A stretch of DNA of 43,485 bases from an uncultured Ignavibacteria bacterium (GCA_913061095.1 CAJXVM010000031.1:1-43485), one strand, 5' to 3'; counted from the first letter of the stretch, positions 1-43,485 are shown. Numbers and translations: made by a program. The notes: generated by a model from the letters alone, not told the origin.

Positions 1-3000
1 TCCGAGACCGACGTCGTGCCGTTGATCGGATCTTCCCACATACCCAGCGGCGCCGGCTGGCGCACGCCGCGCAGCTGGTTACGATCCATCACCATCGACG
101 CCTCGTGATCCGCGTACGGGAACGTCACGTTCGCCGTCCAACCCGAACCGACGTGGTCAAACTGCCAGTACCGCTTCACATACAGCAAACGCGAGAGATT
201 CTGCGGCAGCTGATTCGGATAGGTGCGGATCGTCAGTTCATCGATCTGACCCGCCGTCACTTCCAGTGTCGCGATCGGGTCGCCCGTCTGCGTATCGACG
301 AAGTGATACGGACTGCCCGGCACCGTGAACGGGCCCGGAAGCTTCCCGACCAGCGTCGTGCGTCCTGTTCCGCCACCGGTGTTGGTGATGCGCAGATGCA
401 CTTCCACCTCAAGCGGCTGATTGGTCGCCACAAGACCCTGGTTCGGGGGCGGGAAGTCGTCGTTGAACAGCACCGCGTAGAACGTCAGATGCCCGATGTG
501 CAGCCCCGGTGACATCCCCGAGGGATCCACCGTCATCGTGAACGTCTGGAACTGACGCGGACGCGGCGGCGTGAAATTGTAGCCCTGCTCGGTCGGATCC
601 GGGTTCTCCTTGGTGATCGTGATCCACGAATCCGCCGACTCGACGTCCCAGAGCATGTCGCCCCGGAATCCGTAAATGTTTGTCGTCGTCGCAACCTGGA
701 AGGTCTTGTTGATCAGACCCGGCTGCTTGTAGTTCGCCGTCACCTGAATCGGATCGCTGTCGTCATCGACGAAGTCCTCGATCGGCGAGCCCGGAAGGGC
801 GTACCCGATTTTGGGCGGCGGTGACGGATTGTCGTCGAGCTTGATGTTGTCGATCGACCATTCAGCCCCGTCCGCTGTCGATACCACACGGATACCGATG
901 TAATACATGCCCGTCGCCGGCGGCGTGTTGAAGTACGGATCCCCGGCTTCACCGGAATTGATCCACAGCTCCTTGGCCGTGTACGTGCCCTGGCCGACGC
1001 TCGAGAACGTCGCGAACGTCGTCATTGACGACGGCGTCGGCGCATTGCCCCAGGCCATCTCGATCGACACCGGCACCGAGGCGATGTTTTCGAAATCGAA
1101 GCCGATCCGGTAGCTCGCCGCTGGAAGCAGCGACGCCGCCGGCGTGACAATCCACTCGTCGGAGGGATTGCCGCCGTCATTGAAGTAGATCGCCGTTGTG
1201 CCGCCGGAGCCCACCCCGGTTTCGGTCACCGGCTGCTCGCCGCCGTTGTTGTCGATGATCGTCCACGGCAGATCCATCCAACCCGGATAGTACGAGAATT
1301 CCGGTGTGGCGAACCTGTCGAAGTTCTCGAATCCGTGTACCTTCTCGCCGAAGATCTCGTGCGTATCGCTTGCCTGGTCGTTCGCGCCGTTCGCGTCATT
1401 CGCCCAGAAACTCCGCACGTACAGTGTCGTGCTCGGTGATTCGGCGAGACCGGTCAGCGGCGTGGCAAACTCCACGAGGCCCTCGCTGCCGTTCCACGTC
1501 GGCGTCAGGTTCTCCACCACCGCCGCGTCGCCCTGGTTCGCCATTGGCATCCCGGCGAAGCCGAGGTCCAGCGACGTCGGATTGTCCTTGAGACCCATGT
1601 TCTCGATGACGGCTTTCACCGTGTGGTTGTTTGCGCCTGCCAGGCGGGCCCATTTGTCGGTCGCGTAGCCGACCTGCACGAGTTTGACCGCCATGTCGTA
1701 CTCAGGCGGCGGCGTCGGGTACTCGTCAGCGCCGATGCAGGGAGTCGTCCCGCGTGATTCGCCGTCGATATCCTCGGTGATCCCGAGATTCGCGCCTGCG
1801 AGGTACGCCTTGTGCGAACGCGAGTGCAGATCCGTCGGAGACACGTAGTACGCCTCGCCCCACTGCGAATTCGCGTTGAACGTCGTCTTCGGCAGTGTCG
1901 CCCACGTCTTCGCACCTTCCCAGTCGAAGGGCGTCGACGAACTGTAGCTGTAGAAAACGTTGTAATCAAAGGTCGTAAATTTCGCATCATTCGACACGTA
2001 GAGCAGATAGGCTGTCCCCTGCGCCGTTCCCGTCGACGGTTCGTCGATCTGGATCATGTTGTTGCGCACGTCCCAGTCCCCGTAACCCGAATAGTAGTAC
2101 AGGTACATGCCGTACTTGGTGTTCGAGTCATTGCCCGGCGGAACGATGTTGATGCTGTTGTGGAAACAGTCCACGTAGCGATCGTAGTACCTGCTGTACA
2201 GGCCGTACTGCGTCGACGCGTTCGTCGGTGTCGCCGGAACCGTCGTGATCATGTTGTTGATGATCTTCGCACGGTTCGAGCTCGAGGAATAGCGGTTGGT
2301 GTAATACAGGTAGATCCCGTACTGCTTGGCCTGGATCACGTTGTCTTCGATCCGCGGTCCATTCTGTGCGCGGTAACAGTACACTCCATATCCCCCGGTA
2401 TAGGTGTTCCCCATCCGCTGCTTGATCGTGTTTCCGATGATCTGCGGCCCGGAATGATAGTAATAGAGGTAAATTCCGTAAACGTAGAAATCCGTGATCG
2501 TGTTGTTGAGGAAGCGGTTGTTCTGCGTCCATAACGACGAGCTGCTGCTGCTGTAGGTGCGCAGGTAAATCCCCGTGCCCCCGCCGGTCAGCGTGCAGTT
2601 CTGCACCGTCAGGTTCTCAGCGTATTTGCGATACGTCGTCGTACTCGTCGTCGTACGTCCGGCGATTGCCGCCGTATACGTGTCGGTGGTGGTCGTACTC
2701 ATGTTGATCGTGCAGTTGTCGATCGTGATGTGATCGCAGGGATTCGAGTACGAGGTGTTCGTCATCAGAATGATGCCAGCGCCTTCCGCGCCATCATTAT
2801 TGATCGTCAGACCCTTGAATGTGATGTAGTCCGCCCGGTCCAGACGGATGACGTAATCGTAGTCGCTCGTCGTGTTGTACGCGATCACCGGGTTGTTCGT
2901 CCCTCCGTCGAAAGTGATCGTGTTCGTCGCACTGGATCCCGTGATCTGCTGGATCTCGAACTGTTCGCTGTACGTGCCCGAAGCCACGTTGAACGTCACC

Positions 3001-4160
3001 GGTCCCGTAATGCCAGCCAGGTTCAGCACCGTGACGGCCGCGCTGAACGAAGTGAAGTTCGTCGGTCCCGAACCATTCGGATCGATGGTGTAGGTGCCGC
3101 TGAGCGGACCAAATATCCCGATCGATCCCGCAGGCGAGGATGGATTTGGCGTGGAGCTCGATCCGTCGAAGGTGAAACTCGTGCACGACGCATCGATCTG
3201 GTTGCCCGACATCGCCGTGGGAGAGACATCTACCACCAGCCAGAAATAATTCGAACCCAGCGTCAGCGTCTGCGTGTCGGTAAACGACAGCGTGCCGCCC
3301 GGCGTGGCGACGGCACTGCCGAACATGTTGCTCGTCGAGAAGTTCGAGCTGTTGCCCGTGTAGTACAGCCGCGCGTTCGAAATATCACCGAGATTCGTCG
3401 TGCCGGCCGTGCTGAAATTCATTGCCGTGACGTCCTTCGGATTCGTCGGACTGCTGGTCAGCAGATTCACTCGCAGGACCTGCAGATTGCTTGTGCCGGC
3501 TCCGCTCACGGTCGTCGGATGCTCGGCGTAGCTGCTGAGCAGGCTCATGTTGCCTGGCTCGTAGAGCTGGAACAGATCCACCGCCATGTCGCTGGTGAAA
3601 CTCGACCCGCGTACGCCCTTGAAACGTACCCAGAGATCCGTGGACGTGTTGTAGGCTGCAAGACTGACTGAAGCCTGCGTCCAGGGTGCTGTCATGGAAC
3701 TGTGCTGCTGACCGGTTTTCGACCACAGTGACGTCCAACTCACACCCGAGTTCGTGGAAACCTCAAAAGCCAGCGTTCCCATCGCGGAACCATACATATG
3801 ATACCAGAAATATGCGGTGGGACTTGTCATCGCCGAAACGTCAAAACGATTTGTCAGGTATGCCGTCCCGGAGCTTGTACTCGTCTCGAGATAGACGTAG
3901 TACGTGCCGTCATACGGACCGCTTGGTCCGGTGTTCGATGAACCAGTATTGTTGTTATCCCATTGCCAATATGGACCACTACCACTTCGTGTCCATCCGT
4001 CCCATGGGCCACTCGATCCCCCGGTATCAAAACTTGTCTGATATGGCGCCGGCATCGTGGTCTGCGCCTGACCCGGCGGTGTGGCGAGAAAACCAAGGAC
4101 CGCAACAAGGGCGATTGCGAGAGGGAGTCCCCGGCCGAAATGGATGACATAGCCTTTCAT
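1..4160 (-). CDS. Giant secreted beta-helix (adhesin-like) protein, 3' end outside window
   Basis: One uninterrupted frame runs from ATG at 4160 to base 1 (1386 codons, no stop), so the C-terminus lies outside the window. AGGTGA precedes the start. Residues 1-33 look like a signal peptide ending in GQAQ. Next come a beta-sandwich region (about 40-190), a linker, and a region beginning SGTYTIDPNGSG (about 350) that leads into right-handed parallel beta-helix repeats. These are rich in Asn and Tyr and repeat the pattern (Y)G(I/V/L/M)Y. After about residue 900 there is a choice-of-anchor/cleaved-adhesin-like sandwich (GWMDLPW, WIVTPA) and further beta domains. The SGTY...PTF...AAV layout recurs in the proteins at 36392-39646 and 39787-43047, so a T9SS sorting domain beyond the edge is likely but unseen. 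Probably a surface or secreted carbohydrate-binding or adhesive protein; no catalytic motif was recognised. Confidence 0.85.
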   Translation of the reverse strand, partial: MKGYVIHFGRGLPLAIALVAVLGFLATPPGQAQTTMPAPYQTSFDTGGSSGPWDGWTRSGSGPYWQWDNNNTGSSNTGPSGPYDGTYYVYLETSTSSGTAYLTNRFDVSAMTSPTAYFWYHMYGSAMGTLAFEVSTNSGVSWTSLWSKTGQQHSSMTAPWTQASVSLAAYNTSTDLWVRFKGVRGSSFTSDMAVDLFQLYEPGNMSLLSSYAEHPTTVSGAGTSNLQVLRVNLLTSSPTNPKDVTAMNFSTAGTTNLGDISNARLYYTGNSSNFSTSNMFGSAVATPGGTLSFTDTQTLTLGSNYFWLVVDVSPTAMSGNQIDASCTSFTFDGSSSTPNPSSPAGSIGIFGPLSGTYTIDPNGSGPTNFTSFSAAVTVLNLAGITGPVTFNVASGTYSEQFEIQQITGSSATNTITFDGGTNNPVIAYNTTSDYDYVIRLDRADYITFKGLTINNDGAEGAGIILMTNTSYSNPCDHITIDNCTINMSTTTTDTYTAAIAGRTTTSTTTYRKYAENLTVQNCTLTGGGTGIYLRTYSSSSSSLWTQNNRFLNNTITDFYVYGIYLYYYHSGPQIIGNTIKQRMGNTYTGGYGVYCYRAQNGPRIEDNVIQAKQYGIYLYYTNRYSSSSNRAKIINNMITTVPATPTNASTQYGLYSRYYDRYVDCFHNSINIVPPGNDSNTKYGMYLYYYSGYGDWDVRNNMIQIDEPSTGTAQGTAYLLYVSNDAKFTTFDYNVFYSYSSSTPFDWEGAKTWATLPKTTFNANSQWGEAYYVSPTDLHSRSHKAYLAGANLGITEDIDGESRGTTPCIGADEYPTPPPEYDMAVKLVQVGYATDKWARLAGANNHTVKAVIENMGLKDNPTSLDLGFAGMPMANQGDAAVVENLTPTWNGSEGLVEFATPLTGLAESPSTTLYVRSFWANDANGANDQASDTHEIFGEKVHGFENFDRFATPEFSYYPGWMDLPWTIIDNNGGEQPVTETGVGSGGTTAIYFNDGGNPSDEWIVTPAASLLPAASYRIGFDFENIASVPVSIEMAWGNAPTPSSMTTFATFSSVGQGTYTAKELWINSGEAGDPYFNTPPATGMYYIGIRVVSTADGAEWSIDNIKLDDNPSPPPKIGYALPGSPIEDFVDDDSDPIQVTANYKQPGLINKTFQVATTTNIYGFRGDMLWDVESADSWITITKENPDPTEQGYNFTPPRPRQFQTFTMTVDPSGMSPGLHIGHLTFYAVLFNDDFPPPNQGLVATNQPLEVEVHLRITNTGGGTGRTTLVGKLPGPFTVPGSPYHFVDTQTGDPIATLEVTAGQIDELTIRTYPNQLPQNLSRLLYVKRYWQFDHVGSGWTANVTFPYADHEASMVMDRNQLRGVRQPAPLGMWEDPINGTTSVS

Positions 4161-34232: not shown

Positions 34233-34263
34233 TTGTTCGATCCCCGCAATTTCAGTAGTTTTT
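34233..34263 (+). promoter_or_regulatory. Promoter for the OPT transporter gene
   Basis: Plus strand: TTG (34233-34235), 20 bases, TAGTTTTT (34256-34263). The predicted leader is about 60 nt to ATG 34329. A longer reading frame using the TTG at 34233 as start codon would begin on this -33 element, which argues against that start. Confidence 0.6.
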
Positions 34264-34328
34264 CCCACCGGGATGTCCGTATCCCGGCGAGCCTGTCAAT
34301 CCCACCAGCCACCAGCGCAGGAGAGTGT

Positions 34329-36311
34329 ATGGAACCTTCCGCACGCAGTCTTCCCAAAAACGCCTATACGCCCCTCAAGGAAGGCGAAGAGTATGTATCC
34401 GTCGTACCGTCGAGCGTGACGCCGCGGGAAATCAGCGCGTACTCGGTCGGCTGGGGCCTGTTTTTCTCGGTGCTCTTCTCTGCCGCCGCCGCGTATCTCG
34501 GACTGAAAATCGGCCAGGTGTTCGAGGCCGCGATTCCCATCGCCATCATCGCCGTGGGCATTTCCACCGCGATGAAGCGGAAAAACGCCCTTTCCGAGAA
34601 TGTGATCATCCAGTCCATCGGCGCCGCGAGCGGCGTGGTCGTGGCGGGAGCGATTTTCACCATCCCCGCACTCTACATCCTCGAGCTGCCGGCGAATTTC
34701 TGGCATGTGTTCCTCGCATCGATGTTCGGCGGCTTTCTCGGTATTCTCTACCTGATCCCCTTCCGGCGGTATTTCGTGCAGGACATGCACGGACAGCTTC
34801 CCTTCCCCGAAGCCACCGCGACCACCGAGGTGCTCGTGGCCGGCGAGAGCGGCGGACAGCAGGCGAAGACGCTGCTCGTGGCATCCGCGGTCGGCGGGCT
34901 CTATGATTTCATGGTGACGACGTTTGGCTTCTGGAAGGAGACGTTTTCGACGAAGGTCGTTCCGGGGCTCGATTACGTCGCCGAACATTTCCGCATCGAA
35001 TTCCGCATGAACATCCTAGCGGCGATCACCGGATTGGGGTACATCATCGGTCTGAAGTACGCGGCGATCATCGCGGCGGGATCCTTCCTGTCGTGGTTCG
35101 TGCTGGTGCCGCTGATCGCCTATATCGGGCAGGGACTGACCGAACCGATCGGCACCGGCGTCACGCAGATGATCAATACGATGGATGCGCACACGATTTA
35201 TTTCCATTACGTGCGGCATATCGGCATCGGCGGCATCGCCATGGCCGGCATCATCGGCATCGTCAAGAGCAGCAAAATCATCGGCGGCGCATTCAAGCTC
35301 GCGGCCACCGAGATTTTCGGCAAGAAACATGCGGCTGACGTGGAAGGAGGCAAGCGGACGGACACCGACATCCCCATGGGAACCATCGTGTCGCTGATCG
35401 TGGTCGTTCTCGCCGGCATTTTCGTGTTTTTCTGGCAGGGTGTGACCGGACAGTTCGGCCAGGCCCTTGCCGGTCTGCTGATCGTGGGCGTCATCGCTTT
35501 CCTTTTCACCACCGTTGCGGCGCGCGCCATCGCGATCGTGGGCTCGAATCCCGTCTCCGGGATGACGCTCATGACGCTGATCGTCTCGTCGTTCATTCTG
35601 GTGCAGGTGGGACTCACGGGTCCGACCGGCATGGTCTCCGCGCTGATCATCGGCGGCGTGGTCTGCACAGCGCTGTCCATGGCAGGCGGATTCATCACCG
35701 ACCTGAAGATCGGCTACTGGCTGGGCAACACGCCCAAGCACCAGGAGCGCTGGAAATTTCTCGGCACGCTGCTCGCGGCCGCGTCCGTCGGCGGCGTGAT
35801 CATCCTGCTCAACGCCACGTACGGATTCACCGGCGAGGGCGCCCTGCCGGCGCCGCAGGCCAACGCCATGGCCGCCGTCATCCAGCCGCTGATGTCCGAC
35901 CAGCCCGCGCCCTGGGTGCTGTACATCGCCGGCGCGCTGTTCGCGCTGACGCTGGAATCCATTCACATCCCCCCCCTCGCCTTTGCGCTGGGCATGTATC
36001 TTCCGCTGGAGCTGAACACCCCCGTGCTCGCCGGCGGCATCATCGCGCATTTCGTCTCCACCCGTTCGAAGGACGAGGCCGTCAACAACGCCCGCCGCGA
36101 GCGCGGAACGCTGATTGCCTCCGGACTCATCGCCGGCGGCGCCATCATGGGCGTGGTCAGTGCGGGACTGAAATTCTTCGGCATCAACTACGAGGATTTC
36201 GGCTGGGTCTGGGTACACACCGACGGCGCGGAAATCCTCGCCCTCGCCATGTTTGCCGTCATCGCGGGATACCTGTACTGGGATTCCATGCGCGCGAAGA
36301 AAGCAAAGTAG
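34329..36311 (+). CDS. OPT-family oligopeptide transporter
   Basis: 660 aa from ATG 34329, preceded by AGGAG at 5 bases. A cytoplasmic N-terminus of about 45 residues is followed by about fifteen to sixteen hydrophobic segments. Typical of bacterial OPT members: SVGWGLFFSVLFSAAAAYLG, ALYILELPANFWHVFLASMFGG, LPFPEATATTEVL and the C-terminal FALTLESIHIPPLAFALGMYLPL. The family imports small peptides or metal chelates by proton symport. It may salvage products of the secreted protease, but that link is inference. The gene ends in front of a hairpin (36321-36358) shared with the convergent beta-helix gene. Confidence 0.93.
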   Translation: MEPSARSLPKNAYTPLKEGEEYVSVVPSSVTPREISAYSVGWGLFFSVLFSAAAAYLGLKIGQVFEAAIPIAIIAVGISTAMKRKNALSENVIIQSIGAASGVVVAGAIFTIPALYILELPANFWHVFLASMFGGFLGILYLIPFRRYFVQDMHGQLPFPEATATTEVLVAGESGGQQAKTLLVASAVGGLYDFMVTTFGFWKETFSTKVVPGLDYVAEHFRIEFRMNILAAITGLGYIIGLKYAAIIAAGSFLSWFVLVPLIAYIGQGLTEPIGTGVTQMINTMDAHTIYFHYVRHIGIGGIAMAGIIGIVKSSKIIGGAFKLAATEIFGKKHAADVEGGKRTDTDIPMGTIVSLIVVVLAGIFVFFWQGVTGQFGQALAGLLIVGVIAFLFTTVAARAIAIVGSNPVSGMTLMTLIVSSFILVQVGLTGPTGMVSALIIGGVVCTALSMAGGFITDLKIGYWLGNTPKHQERWKFLGTLLAAASVGGVIILLNATYGFTGEGALPAPQANAMAAVIQPLMSDQPAPWVLYIAGALFALTLESIHIPPLAFALGMYLPLELNTPVLAGGIIAHFVSTRSKDEAVNNARRERGTLIASGLIAGGAIMGVVSAGLKFFGINYEDFGWVWVHTDGAEILALAMFAVIAGYLYWDSMRAKKAK

Positions 36312-36320
36312 TGTCTTACC

Positions 36321-36358
36321 AAAAACAGGTCCCCCCGCCCATACGCGGGGGGACCTGC
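36321..36358 (-). terminator. Terminator of the beta-helix gene, bidirectional between converging genes
   Basis: A perfect 13-bp stem, CAGGTCCCCCCGC / GCGGGGGGACCTG (36327-36339 / 36346-36358), has a 6-base loop and is followed on the minus strand by TTTTT. It is one of three near-identical copies (also 39722-39760 and 43399-43437). Confidence 0.92.
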
Positions 36359-36391
36359 ATCCATGAGGTAATCGAGACAGTGCTCAGCGCG

Positions 36392-39300
36392 TCAGCGCAT
36401 CAGCGCCATCTTGATTGTCTTTGTGTACGTCGCGCCCGAGGCGATGCTGGTCATCGTCATCGTCGCGATGTACGTCCCGCTCGGCAGTTGTGAACCGTCG
36501 AAGGGAATTTCGTGCATGCCCTGCTCCATCTGGTCACGCTGCTCCTCGTACACGCGGCGGCCCAGTGCGTCGGTCACCACCAGGTGCATGCTGCTGGCTT
36601 CCGGCACGGCGCAGCGGATCAGCGTCGATGGGTAGAAGGGATTCGGGTAATTCTGGTCAAGTGTGAATCCGGCTGCCGTCCCCGGCTCCGATTTCGGATT
36701 GCCGCCAAACCACGGTGTCATCTTCGACCAGTTCATCTTCATGGCGATGTAATCGAGGTTGTTGATCACACCGTTGCCGTCGGTGTCCATGTAACAGCCC
36801 TCGGGCGTCTGCCACGGCGAGGAGGCCTGCGGTTTCCACTCGAGATACGTGAACGGATTGGTCTCCTGGTCGACCAGGTAGCGCTTCGGACCGTTGAGCC
36901 AGCTCGTGCGCAGGTTCGCGTTGTAAATGTACATGTTCAGGTCGCGGCGGTCGCTGTAGTTGACCACACCGTCGTTGTTCGCATCGCCCGGCCAGACCAC
37001 GCAGGGCGTGCGGCCTTCCGGCACCACCAGCAGCGCGGAGGGATACGGCATGTAATCGCGGTAATTTCCGCAGCTGTTCATCGTGTGGAAAATCACTTCC
37101 ATGCGGTAGGCCCCCGGCGGCAGTGTGGGCGGCAGGCTGATGTACTGCGTGCCCTGCAGCGGGACGCCGAACTTCTTCGGGGCACTGAAGGAAGTCTCAT
37201 AGACCAGCGCGTTGGTGAACGGATCGTAGAACTGCACGGTGAAGGTGACCGTCGATGCGAAGTCGGGGAAGGTCACGCTGTACTTGACACCGACCGCGCC
37301 GGGTGCCTCGGCATAGGCGGCGGGCAGTCCCGAGCGATCGACGAATTCGTAATTGAGGCTGCCGGGCAGAAGGTAGCAGGCCTCATCGGCGCCGCGGTAC
37401 GGAACGATCCGGGGATTGTGATCGATATCGTCGGTGACGGTGGGAAGCAGCAGACCGGTCAAATCGGCGTCGTCCTGTGATGCACCGGCGAGGTGAAGAT
37501 CGCCGATTTTCACATCCGCAAACTCGACGGTCTTTTCAATCGAGTTCTGATCCATGCCTGAGACGGCCTGCAGGGCTGCCAGATCCGTGCGATCCCCGCT
37601 CCAGTACGCGAGGGGGCTGTGGTTGGAGTAAAACACATTGTAATCCGAGGTGACCGGATCGTACGTGCTCCCGCTGGGATACGTCGCAAACACATTCCCG
37701 CGTGATCCCTCATGATAATAAATATTGTTGAGGAATTCGGCTCCCGTGGAATAGCGGTTGATCACCAGTCCGTAATAATAGGTCGTGGAAATCGGAGAAT
37801 TGCTGTAGACCGTGTTGTACGCGATATAGCTCGTGGACCAGTAGTTATACAGAGCGGCATAACTGACACTGCTGTTGTTCACAAGCGAAATGAAGTTGTT
37901 GACCACGCGCGTCGTCCCGGAAATGTAGTACCCCTGATCGTAGAGGTACAATCCCGCGTACACGTAGCCGCCCGGGAGGAAGATGGAATTCCGCTCGATG
38001 TTGTTGTTATACCCGCCGTAAATATAGACCCCGTACCGGGTGGAAGTTGAACTGGTTGTGAAATCAATGATATTGTCGATGAAGTCCATTTCGGTCTGGT
38101 AGTACATCATGGCCGCTGCGTAGTAATACTGTCCCGTGAACTCGCAGTTCTCCACGATGTTGTACTGCTCGGGAGTAGTGGTGCCGGGACCATAGAACAG
38201 CATCCCGCGAGACCCCTCGCGAATGCCGCAGTTCCGGAACGTGATGTGGCTGTCGTCCCCGCCCGGGGAATAGACGACGTACAGATAGCTAGATGTCGAG
38301 TTCGCGTTGACACCCATCAGTTCGCAGTTCTCGATCGTGATGTATTCCGAACCTCCCGGGAAATGGAGCACATAGCCGTAAGAAGACCCCGCAGCCATGA
38401 TCGTCATGTTCCGGAAGGTGACGTATTTCGCGGCGTTGAATTCGACGACGTAATTCGAGGCACTCGAGCTTGCGCTGTAGGTCAGGTTCACATCCGGCGT
38501 GTTTCCGGACTCGGACTGGAACGTCACGGTGTTCACAGCTGAAGCGCCGTCGATGTCCCCGATGGAAATCTGTTCTTTGTAGGTGCCTGAACGGACATTA
38601 AAGACCACAGGACCGCACAGGCCGTAGGAATTGAGATCCTTGACCGCGGCAGCGAAGGTCGGGTAGTCGGGATTAACCCCGCCAATGGTGAATGTCCCTG
38701 CGATGGCAGCCTGCCCGCTGATACTGGCCGTGTCATTGTTGTTGACCGTATCCTGCACGCCGTTTGGCATGCTGGTCCACGCCGTGATGGTGTACGGCGT
38801 GTTGGTCAGGAAATTATGGGATCCCAGCGTGAGCTGTGTCTCGCGGTTGTTGAGCGTATCGAGACTGCCCGACCAGTTGTACGCAGCCTGCGGCGCGCCG
38901 TTGATCGTCCAGTTGACCGTTGCGGATGTCAGGTAGTTTGTGCCGTTGTTGCGGAGTGTGACCTTGACATCATACTTTCCAGCGCAGAACGGAATCGGCG
39001 GCGAGTCGATGGAGGCGATGCCCGCGTCGTTCGGACCGGTGCGACCTTCGTCATAGTAGATCGTGCCGCAGAACGAGCGTGGATAGTTCTGGAAATCGAA
39101 ATTCGCTGTCCCGGCACCGGGATTGGTCGTGCCACTTCCTCCGTAGCCTTCAACATCAACGGTAAGATAGTTGTCCGAGAAAATATAGTTCCCCGGCACA
39201 CCATTTGCGTATCTGGAGCCGAGGCTCGAAGAGTAAATCGCGAAGCCCCAGGTTTCGTTGGGATTGATGAGAAAATCGAGATCCGCCGGGATCTCCGTAA

Positions 39301-39646
39301 TGGTGGTCGAATTCGTCGCGGTGACTGAAGCCTGGCCGATAAGCTGCCAGCCCGTGTTGTCATACCTCGTAAGCCCACCGTAACGAGCCCAGATCTCCAC
39401 ACTCCCGGTACCGGGATAGGCGAAAATATTCCAGAATCGATACAACCGTACCGACTGTTTCGCCGTGATCGTGAACATGACGACATCAAACTGGTTGTTC
39501 GGAGTTATCCCGGTACTGATGGAATACTGTCCCTGTGCGTGTACCTGTTGTGTCGGTGCCGGGAGAACCAAAAAACACAGCAGAAGGAAAAGCGGCAGCC
39601 ACACGGGCACTGCATGGACAAATCGTGTTGTTCTCAATGTGTGCAT
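36392..39646 (-). CDS. T9SS-exported beta-helix protein with dockerin-like module (paralog 2)
   Basis: 1084 aa from ATG 39646. GAGGTG stands 4 bases upstream, exactly as in the paralog at 43047, and both proteins then begin MHT; a frame start at 39706 lacks this support. Signal peptide to about VHA (37). An N-terminal beta domain is followed by a CARDB/Ig-like domain (PNDAGIASIDSP...). A beta-helix (about 330-690) opens with GTFTIGG and VVFNVRSGTYKEQ and is rich in Tyr and Asn. A conserved block (EKTVEF...LHLAGASQ...) leads to a pair of dockerin/EF-hand-like Ca sites (DANNDGVVNYSD at 888, DTDGNGVINNLD at 954) and a T9SS sorting domain to the C-terminal KMALMR. Probably surface adhesion or carbohydrate binding. 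Confidence 0.9.
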   Translation of the reverse strand: MHTLRTTRFVHAVPVWLPLFLLLCFLVLPAPTQQVHAQGQYSISTGITPNNQFDVVMFTITAKQSVRLYRFWNIFAYPGTGSVEIWARYGGLTRYDNTGWQLIGQASVTATNSTTITEIPADLDFLINPNETWGFAIYSSSLGSRYANGVPGNYIFSDNYLTVDVEGYGGSGTTNPGAGTANFDFQNYPRSFCGTIYYDEGRTGPNDAGIASIDSPPIPFCAGKYDVKVTLRNNGTNYLTSATVNWTINGAPQAAYNWSGSLDTLNNRETQLTLGSHNFLTNTPYTITAWTSMPNGVQDTVNNNDTASISGQAAIAGTFTIGGVNPDYPTFAAAVKDLNSYGLCGPVVFNVRSGTYKEQISIGDIDGASAVNTVTFQSESGNTPDVNLTYSASSSASNYVVEFNAAKYVTFRNMTIMAAGSSYGYVLHFPGGSEYITIENCELMGVNANSTSSYLYVVYSPGGDDSHITFRNCGIREGSRGMLFYGPGTTTPEQYNIVENCEFTGQYYYAAAMMYYQTEMDFIDNIIDFTTSSTSTRYGVYIYGGYNNNIERNSIFLPGGYVYAGLYLYDQGYYISGTTRVVNNFISLVNNSSVSYAALYNYWSTSYIAYNTVYSNSPISTTYYYGLVINRYSTGAEFLNNIYYHEGSRGNVFATYPSGSTYDPVTSDYNVFYSNHSPLAYWSGDRTDLAALQAVSGMDQNSIEKTVEFADVKIGDLHLAGASQDDADLTGLLLPTVTDDIDHNPRIVPYRGADEACYLLPGSLNYEFVDRSGLPAAYAEAPGAVGVKYSVTFPDFASTVTFTVQFYDPFTNALVYETSFSAPKKFGVPLQGTQYISLPPTLPPGAYRMEVIFHTMNSCGNYRDYMPYPSALLVVPEGRTPCVVWPGDANNDGVVNYSDRRDLNMYIYNANLRTSWLNGPKRYLVDQETNPFTYLEWKPQASSPWQTPEGCYMDTDGNGVINNLDYIAMKMNWSKMTPWFGGNPKSEPGTAAGFTLDQNYPNPFYPSTLIRCAVPEASSMHLVVTDALGRRVYEEQRDQMEQGMHEIPFDGSQLPSGTYIATMTMTSIASGATYTKTIKMALMR

Positions 39647-39721
39647 GACACACCTCGTGGATGGTGAATAGATGACAGACTCTATGTCAGTGACACGTCG
39701 GTACACGCATCATCGTTGAAT

Positions 39722-39760
39722 ACAAATAACAGGCCCCCCGCCCATACGCGGGGGGACCTG
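39722..39760 (-). terminator. Terminator hairpin between the tandem beta-helix genes
   Basis: The stem CAGGCCCCCCGC / GCGGGGGGACCTG (one-base bulge) with loop CCATAC is followed on the minus strand by GTTATTTGTA. The T-tract is weak, so read-through into the next gene is plausible; that gene has no clear promoter of its own in the 140-base gap. Confidence 0.8.
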
Positions 39761-39786
39761 CATCCATGAGGTCATCAAGACAGCGC

Positions 39787-42700
39787 TTAGCGCATCAGCG
39801 CCATCTTGATTGTCTTTGTGTACGTCGCGCCCGAGGCGATGCTGGTCATCGTCATCGTCGCAACGTACATACCACTCGACAGCCCGGAGCCGTCGAAGGT
39901 GTATTCATGTACTCCCTTATCCAGAGCCCGGTATTCCTGATCGGTGACGACATGACCGAGCGCGTCAAGAATCACCAGATGCACATCGCTCGCCTCGGGG
40001 AGGCTGTAGCGGATCACCGTGGTCGGATTGAAGGGATTCGGGTAATTCTGGTCCATCGCGAAACTGCCCGCCGCGCCCGGCTCCGCCTTCGGCGGTCCTC
40101 CGAACCACGGGGTCATCTTCGACCAGTTCAGCTTCATCGCGATGTAGTCGAGGTTGTTGATCACACCGTTTCCGTCGGTGTCCATGTAGCAGCCGTCCAG
40201 CGTGTACCACGGCGTCGCCGGCTGCGGCTTCCACTCCAGGTAGGTGAACGGATTCGTCCCTTCATCGACCTGGTAGCGCCGCGGACCGCTGAGCCAGGTC
40301 GTGCGCAGGTTGGCATCGTAGATGTACATGTTCAGCGCACGACGATCCGCATACGTGACCACGCCGTCGTTGTTCGCATCACCCGGCCAGACAATGCAGG
40401 GCACGCGGCCTTCCGGCACCACCAGAAGCGCCGTGGCATACGGCATGTAGTCGCTGTACACATCGCAGCTGTTCTTCGTGTGGAATATCACTTCGACGCG
40501 ATACGGACCCGGCGGCAGTGTCGCCGGCAGGGTGATGTACTGCGTGCCCTGCAGCGGGACGCCGTACTGCTTCGAGGCGCTGAAGGAGGTCTGATACACC
40601 AGCTGGCTGGTGAACGGATCGTAGAACTGCACGGTAAACGTCACCGTCGCGGCGTATTCGGGGAAGCTCACGCCATACTGCACGCCGATCGTGCCGGGCG
40701 CCTCGACGTAGGTGGTCGGCTGACCCTGCCGGTCGACGAACGCGTAGGTCAGGCTGCCGGGCAGCACGTAGCAGGCTTCGTCCGCACCGCGGTAGGGATT
40801 GACCCGCACATCGTTGTCGATATCCTCTGGGACTTCATTGAGCAGAAGCCCGAACAGATCGCTGTCGTTCTCGGATGCTCCGGCAAGGTGCAGGTCACCG
40901 CTCTTCACATCCTTGAATGTGACCGTTTTCTCGATTGCGTGGGCGGCCATGCCCGATGCCGCCTGCAGTTCGGCGACATTCATGCATGCCGTGTACGCCG
41001 GGTAATCCCAGAGAACGAAGTTCGGTCCGTCGGAGTAGTATACGTTGTAATCCATCTCGGAAACCGCGCTCGGAGCGATATGCCAGACCGTGAGACTGTT
41101 CCCGCCGGTGGCGTAAAAGATATTGTTGAGCCACCTCTGGTTTGACCCGTACGCCGATTCGACACAGCGATTGTTGAGGTTCAGGCTGCTGGACACGTAG
41201 AAGGTATTGTGCGCCACCAGCAGGTTGGTCCCGTACTGGAGAATCAGACCCGCCGACCAGTAACTGGCGTTGTTGTGAATGTTGGTAAGGAAGTTGTTGA
41301 CGAAACGGTTACTCGTCCCCTGATTGTTATATGCATATATATACACCAGGTACCGCGTGTATGAATCCTCATCGGAGAAGAACCAGTTCCGTTCGATGGA
41401 GAAATCGCCCGGATAGGAGAGGTACAGAAGATACTGTGCATAAAGATACACCGGCGCAGTCTGGATAAGACGATTGTCATGAAATGTCAGACGCTCGGTG
41501 TAAGGACCGTAGAACAGGTAATACGCCTGGCCGGTGAATTCGCATCCCTTCACCGTCAGGTCTTCTGTGCGCGAGGCGGACGAAGAACCGTACATGTACA
41601 TGCCGTACGTCCCCTCACGGATACCGCAGTTCTCGAACGTCGTGCGATGATTGAGAACTCCGGAAGCGGAATACACCACCGCATAGTAGCTCGAACTCGT
41701 GGTGTTGATGTTCGGTGAAATCAGCTCGCAGTTGATAAAACTGCCGTCGGTCGATGTGCCCATTTCAACCGCCCGTCCGTAGGAAGCTCCCGTCGCGGTT
41801 ACCGTCATGTCCTTGAACGTAATGAACTTCGAATCGCCCATCGAGATGACATAATTCGACGCACTGGATGTCGCCGAATACGTCAGATTGACCGTGGCGG
41901 GATTCGCGGATTCGGACTGGAAGGTGACCGTGTTGACCGCCGATGTGCCGGCGATATCCGACAGCTCCACCTGCTCGGTGTACGTCCCCGACCGCACGTT
42001 GAAGACCACCGGCCCGCACAGGCCAAGCGTTTTCAGATCCTTGACGGCGTCAGCGAACGTCGGGTAGTCCGGACTGGCCCCGCCGATCGTGAATGTTCCG
42101 GATAGAGCCGCCTTCCCGGTATACGAGGCTGTATCATTGCTGATCATCGTATCCTGCACACCGTTCGGCATCGCGGTCCATGCCGTGAACGTGTACGGGA
42201 CGCCGCTCTGCAGGTTCATCGTGCCGAGTGTCACCTGTGTCTGGCGCGTGGTCTGATTGAGCGTATCGAGCAGTCCCGACCAGTTATTGGTGGGCTGCGG
42301 CACGCCGTTGACCGACCAGTGAATCTGTGCCGATGTGACCTGATTGGTACCGAAATTCTTCAGTGTCACCTTCACGTCATTCATCCCCGCACAGAAGTTC
42401 ACCGGCGAATCGATCGAGGCGATGCCTACGTCGTTAGGAACGGTCACAGCCGCGGCATAGTAGATTTCCACCCGGCAGATCGATCCTGTGAGCTCTGTCC
42501 ACACGCCACCGGTGATGGGCAGGTTCCCCCCCTGATGACCGAAACGGGTGATGTTGACCGGATTTCCGAAAATACTCGACTGCCAGGGACTTGGTCCGTC
42601 ATAGGAGTTGTACAGCGTGCCGCCATTCGTCCCTCGGGCACCGACGATACCGATGTAATCACCGGTTTGCACGAGAATATCGCAGGGAATAATCGCCGTT

Positions 42701-43047
42701 GAGTTCACGTTCGTCCAGTAACCCAGTGTGGTGTAATTCGTTGTTAATGTGGAATACACACAACAGATCGCCGGATTGCACCCCAATTTGAACACCTGGA
42801 TGTTCTGCGCCGCGGTGCTGGCGTCCGTCGGAACACGCACACCAACGATGCGGAAATCCGTCGGAGCCTGGAACCAGAAACCGCGAATCATTGACGACGT
42901 ATAGGTGCTGCTGTGGGGTGGGATTGGCATCATGGTCTGTGCGTGCAGGTCCTTCGCGATGAACACTGACAGGCAGAACATCAGAAGACCGAGCAGTAGT
43001 CGCGCCGGTGCTTCACTACGGGAGCGATTCAGTAACATGGTGTGCAT
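39787..43047 (-). CDS. T9SS-exported beta-helix protein with dockerin-like module (paralog 1)
   Basis: 1086 aa from ATG 43047, with GAGGTG 4 bases upstream. Signal peptide to about LHA (36), an N-terminal beta domain (40-205), a CARDB/Ig-like domain (PNDVGIASIDSP...), and a parallel beta-helix opening with GTFTIGG and VVFNVRSGTYTEQ. A conserved C-terminal third carries dockerin-like sites (DANNDGVVTYAD, DTDGNGVINNLD) and a T9SS sorting domain (NYPNPFNPTTV...) to KMALMR. The N-terminal CARDB block and C-terminal third align closely with the downstream paralog, and the last 25 or so residues are identical. The central helix and first 200 residues differ. It has a strong promoter at 43267-43295 with a leader of about 210 nt. 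Confidence 0.92.
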   Translation of the reverse strand: MHTMLLNRSRSEAPARLLLGLLMFCLSVFIAKDLHAQTMMPIPPHSSTYTSSMIRGFWFQAPTDFRIVGVRVPTDASTAAQNIQVFKLGCNPAICCVYSTLTTNYTTLGYWTNVNSTAIIPCDILVQTGDYIGIVGARGTNGGTLYNSYDGPSPWQSSIFGNPVNITRFGHQGGNLPITGGVWTELTGSICRVEIYYAAAVTVPNDVGIASIDSPVNFCAGMNDVKVTLKNFGTNQVTSAQIHWSVNGVPQPTNNWSGLLDTLNQTTRQTQVTLGTMNLQSGVPYTFTAWTAMPNGVQDTMISNDTASYTGKAALSGTFTIGGASPDYPTFADAVKDLKTLGLCGPVVFNVRSGTYTEQVELSDIAGTSAVNTVTFQSESANPATVNLTYSATSSASNYVISMGDSKFITFKDMTVTATGASYGRAVEMGTSTDGSFINCELISPNINTTSSSYYAVVYSASGVLNHRTTFENCGIREGTYGMYMYGSSSASRTEDLTVKGCEFTGQAYYLFYGPYTERLTFHDNRLIQTAPVYLYAQYLLYLSYPGDFSIERNWFFSDEDSYTRYLVYIYAYNNQGTSNRFVNNFLTNIHNNASYWSAGLILQYGTNLLVAHNTFYVSSSLNLNNRCVESAYGSNQRWLNNIFYATGGNSLTVWHIAPSAVSEMDYNVYYSDGPNFVLWDYPAYTACMNVAELQAASGMAAHAIEKTVTFKDVKSGDLHLAGASENDSDLFGLLLNEVPEDIDNDVRVNPYRGADEACYVLPGSLTYAFVDRQGQPTTYVEAPGTIGVQYGVSFPEYAATVTFTVQFYDPFTSQLVYQTSFSASKQYGVPLQGTQYITLPATLPPGPYRVEVIFHTKNSCDVYSDYMPYATALLVVPEGRVPCIVWPGDANNDGVVTYADRRALNMYIYDANLRTTWLSGPRRYQVDEGTNPFTYLEWKPQPATPWYTLDGCYMDTDGNGVINNLDYIAMKLNWSKMTPWFGGPPKAEPGAAGSFAMDQNYPNPFNPTTVIRYSLPEASDVHLVILDALGHVVTDQEYRALDKGVHEYTFDGSGLSSGMYVATMTMTSIASGATYTKTIKMALMR

Positions 43048-43266
43048 GGCGCACCTCTTGGATGGTGAGAAAGTGGAAGATGTATCTCATTGATGCGCCG
43101 GCACACGCATCATCATATCATCATTGTCTTCACTTCAACACACAGAGATCCGCTTCCACGGCACGGGCAGACAACGTGTGCCGGGAAACACGAACGGACT
43201 CGACGAAAGCACGCTCCGGAAAGCGTGTTTGCAGGAGAGGCTTATCTTCTGATGAGAGACGTGCGG

Positions 43267-43295
43267 AATATACGACAATTACCGGGTGCTGTCAA
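43267..43295 (-). promoter_or_regulatory. Near-consensus promoter for the beta-helix gene
   Basis: Minus strand: TTGACA (43290-43295), 17 bases, TATATT (43267-43272). This is both a textbook sigma-70 layout and the local TTG-N20-TAnnTT form. The gap 43048-43463 (416 bases) otherwise holds the leader, the element at 43302-43326 and the terminator at 43399-43437. Confidence 0.75.
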
Positions 43296-43301
43296 GGCAT
43301 C

Positions 43302-43326
43302 GGACAAAAAAGTTGCTTTTTCGTCC
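43302..43326 (-). promoter_or_regulatory. AT-rich inverted repeat just upstream of the -35 box
   Basis: Arms GGACAAAAAAG and CTTTTTCGTCC (one mismatch) flank TTG. It is placed 6 bases upstream of the -35 element, where a regulator or UP-type element would act. The sequence is closely related to 4323-4339 upstream of the giant beta-helix gene. Confidence 0.45.
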
Positions 43327-43398
43327 ATGCGCGCCGATGCCGAACATCAGCAGGGATTACGCAGCTGCAACTCGTCTGGCCCCAAACCCCCGTCAATC

Positions 43399-43437
43399 AA
43401 AAAACAGGCCCCCCGCCCTGGTGCGCGGGGGGACCTG
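43399..43437 (-). terminator. Terminator of a third tandem paralog
   Basis: The stem CAGGCCCCCCGC / GCGGGGGGACCTG is followed on the minus strand by six T. It is the third copy of the hairpin also found at 36321-36358 and 39722-39760, and lies 26 bases past the stop codon at 43464. Confidence 0.9.
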
Positions 43438-43463
43438 CATCCATGAGGTCATCAAGAGGGCGC

Positions 43464-43485
43464 CTAGCGCGTCAGCGCCATCTTG
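43464..43485 (-). CDS. C-terminal end of a third beta-helix paralog (partial)
   Basis: Only the last codons are inside the window: they read KMALTR then TAG (43464-43466). They match the final residues KMALMR of the proteins at 36392-39646 and 39787-43047, and the same 3' spacer and terminator hairpin follow. This shows that the tandem family continues beyond the window's right edge. Confidence 0.85.

What the first reader, a model, noticed from the sequence alone, without database searches (positions are those of the whole stretch)
36321..43485. Tandem family of large surface proteins with fixed ends and divergent beta-helix cores
Two full paralogs and the end of a third lie head to tail. 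Seen directly: the same leader words (GATGATGCGTGT, TCACCATCCA), the same GAGGTG-4-ATG start, near-identical C-terminal third, identical last 25 or so residues and the same terminator. The first 200 residues and the Tyr/Asn-rich beta-helix differ strongly. Conserved flanks with a variable exposed middle is what a recombining or phase-variable surface repertoire would look like. That interpretation is inference; a simple ancient duplication with selection on the ends is the alternative.
Basis: partly seen in the sequence, partly recalled or inferred. Interest (0 to 1): 0.65.

Follow-up and report, generated by a model that had tools for sequence, protein, structure and literature searches.

The report
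Surface-protein gene array sharing recombined tails
A group of uncultured bacteria carries rows of genes for large secreted surface proteins that keep a few ancient, different outer 'heads' while recombination within each genome keeps overwriting their shared stalks and anchors, a known evolutionary trick seen here in an apparently undescribed protein family.

Summary
The "near-identical C-terminal third" is overstated (72-82% aa, sorting domain 52%); only the last 73 nt and the terminator are near-identical.

They belong to a lineage-wide family (window = whole contig C31 of a 4.6-Mb Ignavibacteria-related genome) found in tandem arrays; a single-contig relative has 13 full copies in a row. 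Architecture: signal peptide, head, CARDB domain, predicted beta-helix, beta-sandwich, dockerin-like motif, T9SS sorting domain; SprA and PorU occur in the same genome.

Three head types recur across genera, whereas the C-terminal part groups by genome. Silent sites agree: long matching tracts join copies with unrelated heads, significant in 62/183 within-genome pairs against 2/807 between genomes. This indicates intragenomic gene conversion (concerted evolution) of stalk and anchor. In the window itself the signal is weak (last ~25 codons). No phase-variable repeats or nearby recombinases were found.

Recombining, yes; phase-variable, no evidence; the stable variable part is the N-terminal head, not the middle. 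Closest in behaviour: H. pylori Bab and P. gingivalis gingipain/HagA genes. New variant of a known kind.

The parts
36392..39646 (-). Paralogue A, likely CDS (ATG 39646; GAGGTG Shine-Dalgarno-like motif 4 nt upstream); head type I
39787..43047 (-). Paralogue B, CDS (ATG 43047); head type II
43464..43485 (-). Last six codons and stop of a third copy (KMALTR*), cut by the contig end
   Evidence: terminator similarity (D3)
39062..39532 (-). A: N-terminal head domain (residues 59-215 of the open frame), beta-sandwich
   Evidence: model; type clusters
38708..39061 (-). A: CARDB-like domain (residues 216-333)
   Evidence: homologous segment of B matches CARDB 3idu, Z 12.1
37382..38707 (-). A: predicted right-handed beta-helix (residues 334-775)
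   Evidence: AlphaFold model, regular short strands, pLDDT mostly 70-95 up to about residue 730
36872..37381 (-). A: post-helix beta-sandwich and first dockerin-like calcium motif (residues 776-945), weak Wzt_C match
36677..36871 (-). A: second dockerin-like calcium motif region (residues 946-1010)
   Evidence: Dockerin_1 in 14 of 15 members at E<=0.01
36395..36676 (-). A: T9SS type A sorting domain (residues 1011-1104)
   Evidence: Por_Secre_tail, 15 of 15 members
36394..36466 (-). 73-nt tract identical to the end of B: best candidate for a short conversion tract in the window
39789..39861 (-). Same 73-nt tract in B
36325..36358 (-). Intrinsic terminator of A
39734..39755 (-). Terminator-like hairpin of B with an interrupted T run (possible read-through into A)
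   Evidence: sequence
43409..43432 (-). Terminator of the third copy
43267..43295 (-). Promoter-like site TTGACA-17-TATATT upstream of B (11 of 12 matches; such sites as a class are no commoner than in shuffles)
34233..36311 (+). OPT oligopeptide transporter: conserved neighbour of this array locus (91% aa to the neighbour of the G001 C8 array)

Best explanation
A and B belong to an array of type IX-secreted, surface-attached head-stalk-anchor proteins. Each protein carries one of a few ancient N-terminal beta-sandwich heads (probably ligand- or glycan-binding) on a CARDB plus beta-helix stalk, ending in a sandwich, a dockerin-like module and a T9SS sorting domain that exports it and attaches it to the surface. 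Within each genome, homologous recombination between paralogues (mainly non-reciprocal gene conversion, plus tandem duplication and loss) keeps overwriting the 3' half, so stalk and anchor evolve in concert while the heads are kept as a repertoire. Shown: the architecture by profile and model, the mosaic phylogeny, silent-site identity tracts, T9SS machinery in the genome. Inferred: surface location, binding role of the heads, that selection maintains the heads, and that conversion rather than another recombination route is the main mechanism.
For: Family and arrays: (13 full tandem copies in one-contig G008). T9SS: sorting domain in 15/15 members, SprA 1069 bits and PorU 974 bits in the same genome. 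Head trees cross genera, C-terminal trees group 14/14 (G008), 11/11 (G001), 5/5 (G009), 3/3 (G000) by genome; the three segment topologies reject each other (AU). Fourfold sites: post-helix to end within G008 and G009 0.65-0.84, against about 0.35-0.5 in head and most core segments and 0.45-0.65 between G008 and G009. Runs of silent-identical codons: 62/183 within-genome pairs p<=0.01 against 2/807 between, e.g. G008 copies 8 and 13: heads 41-59% DNA identity, then 309 matching codons; G008 3 and 5: heads 36-46%, last 281 compared codons identical, 3' flanks unrelated right after the stop, so the tract is bounded on both sides. Positional orthologues (G000 C4 / G001 C7a) share a head type while C4's C region is closer to its own paralogues at silent sites (52% against 72-82%). 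Contig ends cut copies in the C-terminal third in 20 of 26 cases.
Against: In the window pair itself only the last ~25 codons show a recent tract (p=0.013). Several relatives are metagenome assemblies, where chimeric joins at repeats can mimic conversion; reads could not be checked. The run test compares against uniform shuffling, so segment-wise differences in age would also score. The dockerin-like region has low model confidence. No strain-level data. No experimental evidence of surface location or binding. Some same-genome heads are also close (26/45 nearest mates), reflecting recent duplication.
Confidence: 0.76

Rival explanations
1. Ancient duplication with purifying selection on the ends and relaxed or diversifying selection in the middle, no recombination.
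For: Explains the A-B pair over most of its length: fourfold sites of the sorting domain are only 39% identical and no long exact tract exists.
Against: Silent sites in C regions of relatives are homogenised per genome, with matching tracts of 100-430 codons next to unrelated or diverged heads; C-terminal trees group by genome while heads cross genera.
Confidence: 0.12
2. Programmed antigenic or phase variation: silent cassettes, invertase or slipped-strand switching generate variants of an exposed region.
For: Tandem surface genes with conserved flanks resemble such systems; recombination does occur.
Against: Every complete copy examined has its own start and sorting domain, no slippage tracts in A or B or their leaders, no recombinase among the neighbours scanned, head types are stable across genera rather than hypervariable.
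Confidence: 0.06
3. Head shuffling is the driver: N-terminal heads are moved onto a constant stalk and anchor, rather than the tails being overwritten.
For: The syntenic window locus carries different heads in the second position (B type II, G001 C8a type I, 17% identity).
Against: At the C4/C7a/C212 locus the heads are positional orthologues of one type, while the C4 tail looks like the tails of its own genome; G008 tracts run to the stop with differing 3' flanks, which fits tail overwriting.
Confidence: 0.15

Closest known systems
Helicobacter pylori Bab (BabA/BabB/BabC) outer membrane adhesin family (PMC4552749)
   Same: Paralogues with nearly identical ends, a divergent part held responsible for adhesion, and chimeras made by intragenomic gene conversion.
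   Different: Bab proteins are outer membrane proteins with a variable middle and CT-repeat phase variation; here the divergent part is the N-terminal head, the export signal is a T9SS sorting domain, and no phase-variable repeats were found. No homology was tested or claimed.
Porphyromonas gingivalis gingipain / HagA adhesin genes (PMC5266723)
   Same: T9SS-exported surface proteins whose modules rearrange and are exchanged, with a conserved C-terminal sorting domain.
   Different: Gingipains are proteases with adhesin domains at few loci; here beta-helix proteins without a recognised catalytic domain, in long tandem arrays.
Tannerella forsythia KLIKK proteases (PMC4404884)
   Different: Six proteases with catalytic domains; that paper does not mention recombination or gene conversion; here the stalk is shared as well.
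T9SS type A sorting domain proteins in general (PF18962 / TIGR04183)
   Same: C-terminal sorting domain; over 100 such genes in this genome.
   Different: This family is singled out by tandem arrays and per-genome homogenised 3' halves; the sorting domains of unrelated proteins in the genome are about 24-47% identical to A's.

Membership tests
T9SS type A cargo | C-terminal Por_Secre_tail sorting domain | tested here: met
   15 of 15 members at E<=0.01; B 30.3 bits over the cut-off of 27, A 25.4 just under
T9SS type A cargo | N-terminal signal peptide | tested here: met
   Hydrophobic leader ending in AQ, invariant in 15 members; no dedicated predictor was run
T9SS type A cargo | T9SS machinery in the genome | tested here: met
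   SprA and PorU sortase over their cut-offs; 0 of 14 control genomes over cut-off
T9SS type A cargo | Demonstrated surface attachment | not testable with these tools
   needs proteomics or microscopy
Dockerin type I | Two calcium-binding repeats matching PF00404 | tested here: inconclusive
   14 of 15 members match at E<=0.01 but A and B are under the cut-off; weak cohesin-like matches exist in the genome; fold not confidently modelled
Right-handed beta-helix / pectin-lyase-like | Parallel beta-helix fold | tested here: inconclusive
   AlphaFold strands fit but no Pfam Beta_helix match for A or B and only weak Foldseek matches
CARDB domain | CARDB fold after the head | tested here: met
   3idu Z 12.1, rmsd 2.7 over 107 residues for B
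Concertedly evolving paralogue family | Paralogues more alike within than between genomes, at silent sites, in part of the gene | tested here: met
Phase-variable / antigenic-variation locus | Slippage tracts, adjacent invertase or recombinase, or silent cassettes | tested here: not met
   (window and arrays read); strain-level switching itself could not be tested

The most novel reading that the evidence does not exclude
The arrays are a maintained 'head code': three or more ancient ligand-binding heads kept through genus divergence on interchangeable stalks, with the dockerin-like module docking to cohesin-like surface proteins of the same genome, so that a T9SS-secreted, cellulosome-like modular coat is built whose shared parts are kept compatible by gene conversion.
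Probability: 0.08. Interest if true: 0.75.

Novelty: new variant of a known kind. Interest (0 to 1): 0.45.

Why it matters
It gives a clear natural case, in an uncultured lineage, where silent-site data separate recombination from selection in a tandem T9SS surface family, and it shows which part of such proteins is preserved as a repertoire (heads) and which is kept uniform (stalk and export signal). It also explains why assemblies of this lineage tend to break at these genes and warns that MAGs may under-count them.

Tried and rejected
Phase variation by slipped-strand repeats (none in A, B or leaders; a few poly-A and triplet runs in relatives, not shared). Site-specific recombinase next to the array (OPT transporter, DUF3160, histidine kinase; AbgT transporter and an AIR synthase in G008). 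Shared terminator as part of the recombination unit: not general, G008 terminators differ between copies with identical tails. Whole-profile search of solved structures gave only weak dockerin and FlgD matches. IQ-TREE with bootstrap timed out and was replaced by FastTree topologies with AU tests at 1000 replicates (the program warns that 10000 are advised, but log-likelihood gaps exceed 900). Foldseek with the full-length model was uninformative. The neighbour protein beside the G001 C5 array looked cohesin-like by eye but has no cohesin match in Pfam. A head-type script missed several copies lacking the motif used, so type counts are lower bounds.

Full report
What is there. The two genes are on the minus strand. 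Paralogue A is best read from ATG 39646 to the stop at 36392-36394 (the open frame extends to a GTG at 39706), paralogue B is 39787-43047, and the contig ends inside a third copy of which only KMALTR-stop remains. The window is the complete contig C31 of a 4.6-Mb, 42-contig genome. Segment identities between A and B are 12-22% (N-terminal region), 64% (CARDB), 26-66% (helix), 72-82% (post-helix and dockerin-like), 52% (sorting domain) and 93% (last 29 residues). The longest exact DNA matches are 73 nt at the 3' end and 39 nt across the terminator.

The family. A search of the genome finds the closest relatives on contigs C4, C23, C16, C7 and C22 besides A and B, and more than 100 other places sharing only the sorting domain. 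Relatives in the same genus, family and order carry up to 13 full tandem copies, most clearly in G008, a one-contig genome: C1 2208629-2258646, followed by two related genes. Named contigs identical in length and layout to several of these genomes are labelled Ignavibacteria bacterium BM516, Bacteroidetes bacterium MAG20 and SZUA-365, so the lineage is an uncultured Ignavibacteria-related group; I did not determine its exact taxonomy.

Architecture. Signal peptide ending in AQ (invariant), an N-terminal head, a CARDB domain, a long region of regular short strands modelled as a beta-helix, a beta-sandwich with a weak Wzt_C match, two dockerin-like calcium motifs and a T9SS type A sorting domain. 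The separately modelled N-terminal part of B (pLDDT 78) has a CARDB domain (3idu, Z 12.1) and a head resembling the PHR domain 3gbw (Z 12.0, rmsd 2.9 over 139 residues) and domains of phage baseplates and tail tips (Z 9-11). A shared fold shows no function. The T9SS translocon SprA and the sortase PorU are encoded in the same genome.

Recombination. Trees of the head, core and C-terminal segments conflict. Heads group across genera, with at least three types found together in G000, G001, G008 and G009; C-terminal segments group by genome in all four genomes tested. Each segment alignment rejects the other segments' topologies. Selection on the export signal alone cannot explain this, because silent positions behave the same way: within a genome fourfold sites of the C region agree more than those of head and core, and more than between genomes, most strongly in G008 and G009. 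Runs of codons identical at silent positions are significant in 62 of 183 within-genome pairs and 2 of 807 between-genome pairs. G008 copies 3 and 5 have heads at 36-46% DNA identity, 98-100% identity from about residue 690 to the stop, and unrelated sequence right after the stop: the tract is bounded on both sides, which tandem duplication alone does not give. G001 C7a and C7b have heads at 21-33% and a stretch of 218 silent-identical codons. Contig ends that cut family copies fall in the C-terminal third in 20 of 26 cases (p = 3e-5; 14 of 20 without G009, p = 0.002; positions read by hand; test), as expected if that third is the real repeat in these genomes.

Arrangement between relatives. 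The window array has the same neighbours as the G001 C8 array (OPT transporter 91%, DUF3160 protein 67%, histidine kinase 56%). The gene next to the OPT transporter has a type I head in both (43% identical), but the next one is type II in the window (B) and type I in G001 (C8a), 17% identical. C16 corresponds to G001 C21, C4 to G001 C7 and G003 C212, and C22 to G001 C5 through the 379-aa neighbour. From orientations I infer two array loci in this genus, one from the C16 side to the window (G001: C21 to C8) and one from C4 to C22 (G001: C7 to C5). If so, G000 may hold as few as three copies and one copy there, against at least five and six in G001. These joins are inference across unassembled gaps.

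How it most likely works. [quoted passage not shown] the head probably binds something outside; stalk and anchor are generic. Homologous recombination between paralogues continually overwrites 3' halves. Whether this is merely a by-product of repeated sequence or is favoured because it keeps export and assembly parts compatible cannot be told from sequence. In the window itself the only recent trace is the 3' end (21 silent-identical codons, p = 0.013).

Known precedents. H. pylori Bab genes combine near-identical ends, a divergent adhesive part and intragenomic gene conversion (PMC4552749). P. gingivalis gingipain and HagA genes exchange modules (PMC5266723). [quoted passage not shown] The literature searches made here found no description of this family; only open-licence papers were searched. 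The behaviour is therefore known; the family and its head-versus-tail pattern appear undescribed.

Limits. Most relatives are MAGs; reads could not be inspected; no two strains of one species were available; surface location and binding are untested; segment trees were built with FastTree; the run test assumes exchangeable codons along a gene.

Noticed in passing
window 3-4160 (-): The left end of the contig cuts another large secreted protein with MAM, BNR_assoc_N and Beta_helix domains, a distant relative of A's helix (26% over 752 residues), so both ends of this contig stop in surface-protein genes.
   Followed up: partly
L052 9461-14029 (G000 C7), G008 C1 2604001-2624000 (L074): Longer relatives share head and helix with A but lack its C-terminal module.
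   Followed up: no
G006 C43 and C123, G010 C133, G012 C196: Separate tandem rows of roughly 500-600-aa proteins share only the C-terminal third with A: the anchor module has been combined with other front parts and also forms arrays.
   Followed up: no
G000 C16:86918-87160, C40:1367-1726; G008 nine places: Weak cohesin-like matches around the Pfam cut-off occur in the same genomes as the dockerin-like modules.
   Followed up: partly
G000 C22:505-1626; L043 3394-4533: A conserved 379-386-aa secreted protein of unknown function sits directly downstream of the array in both G000 and G001 (53% identical).
   Followed up: partly
window 43267-43295 (-): Near-consensus TTGACA-17-TATATT promoter-like site upstream of B, with a leader of about 220 nt; A has none and B's terminator has an interrupted T run, so A may depend on read-through.
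   Followed up: no
family-wide: Signal peptides end in AQ in every aligned member, as in the Bacteroidetes 'Q-rule' (PMC5837995), which that paper reports also for Ignavibacterium album.
   Followed up: partly
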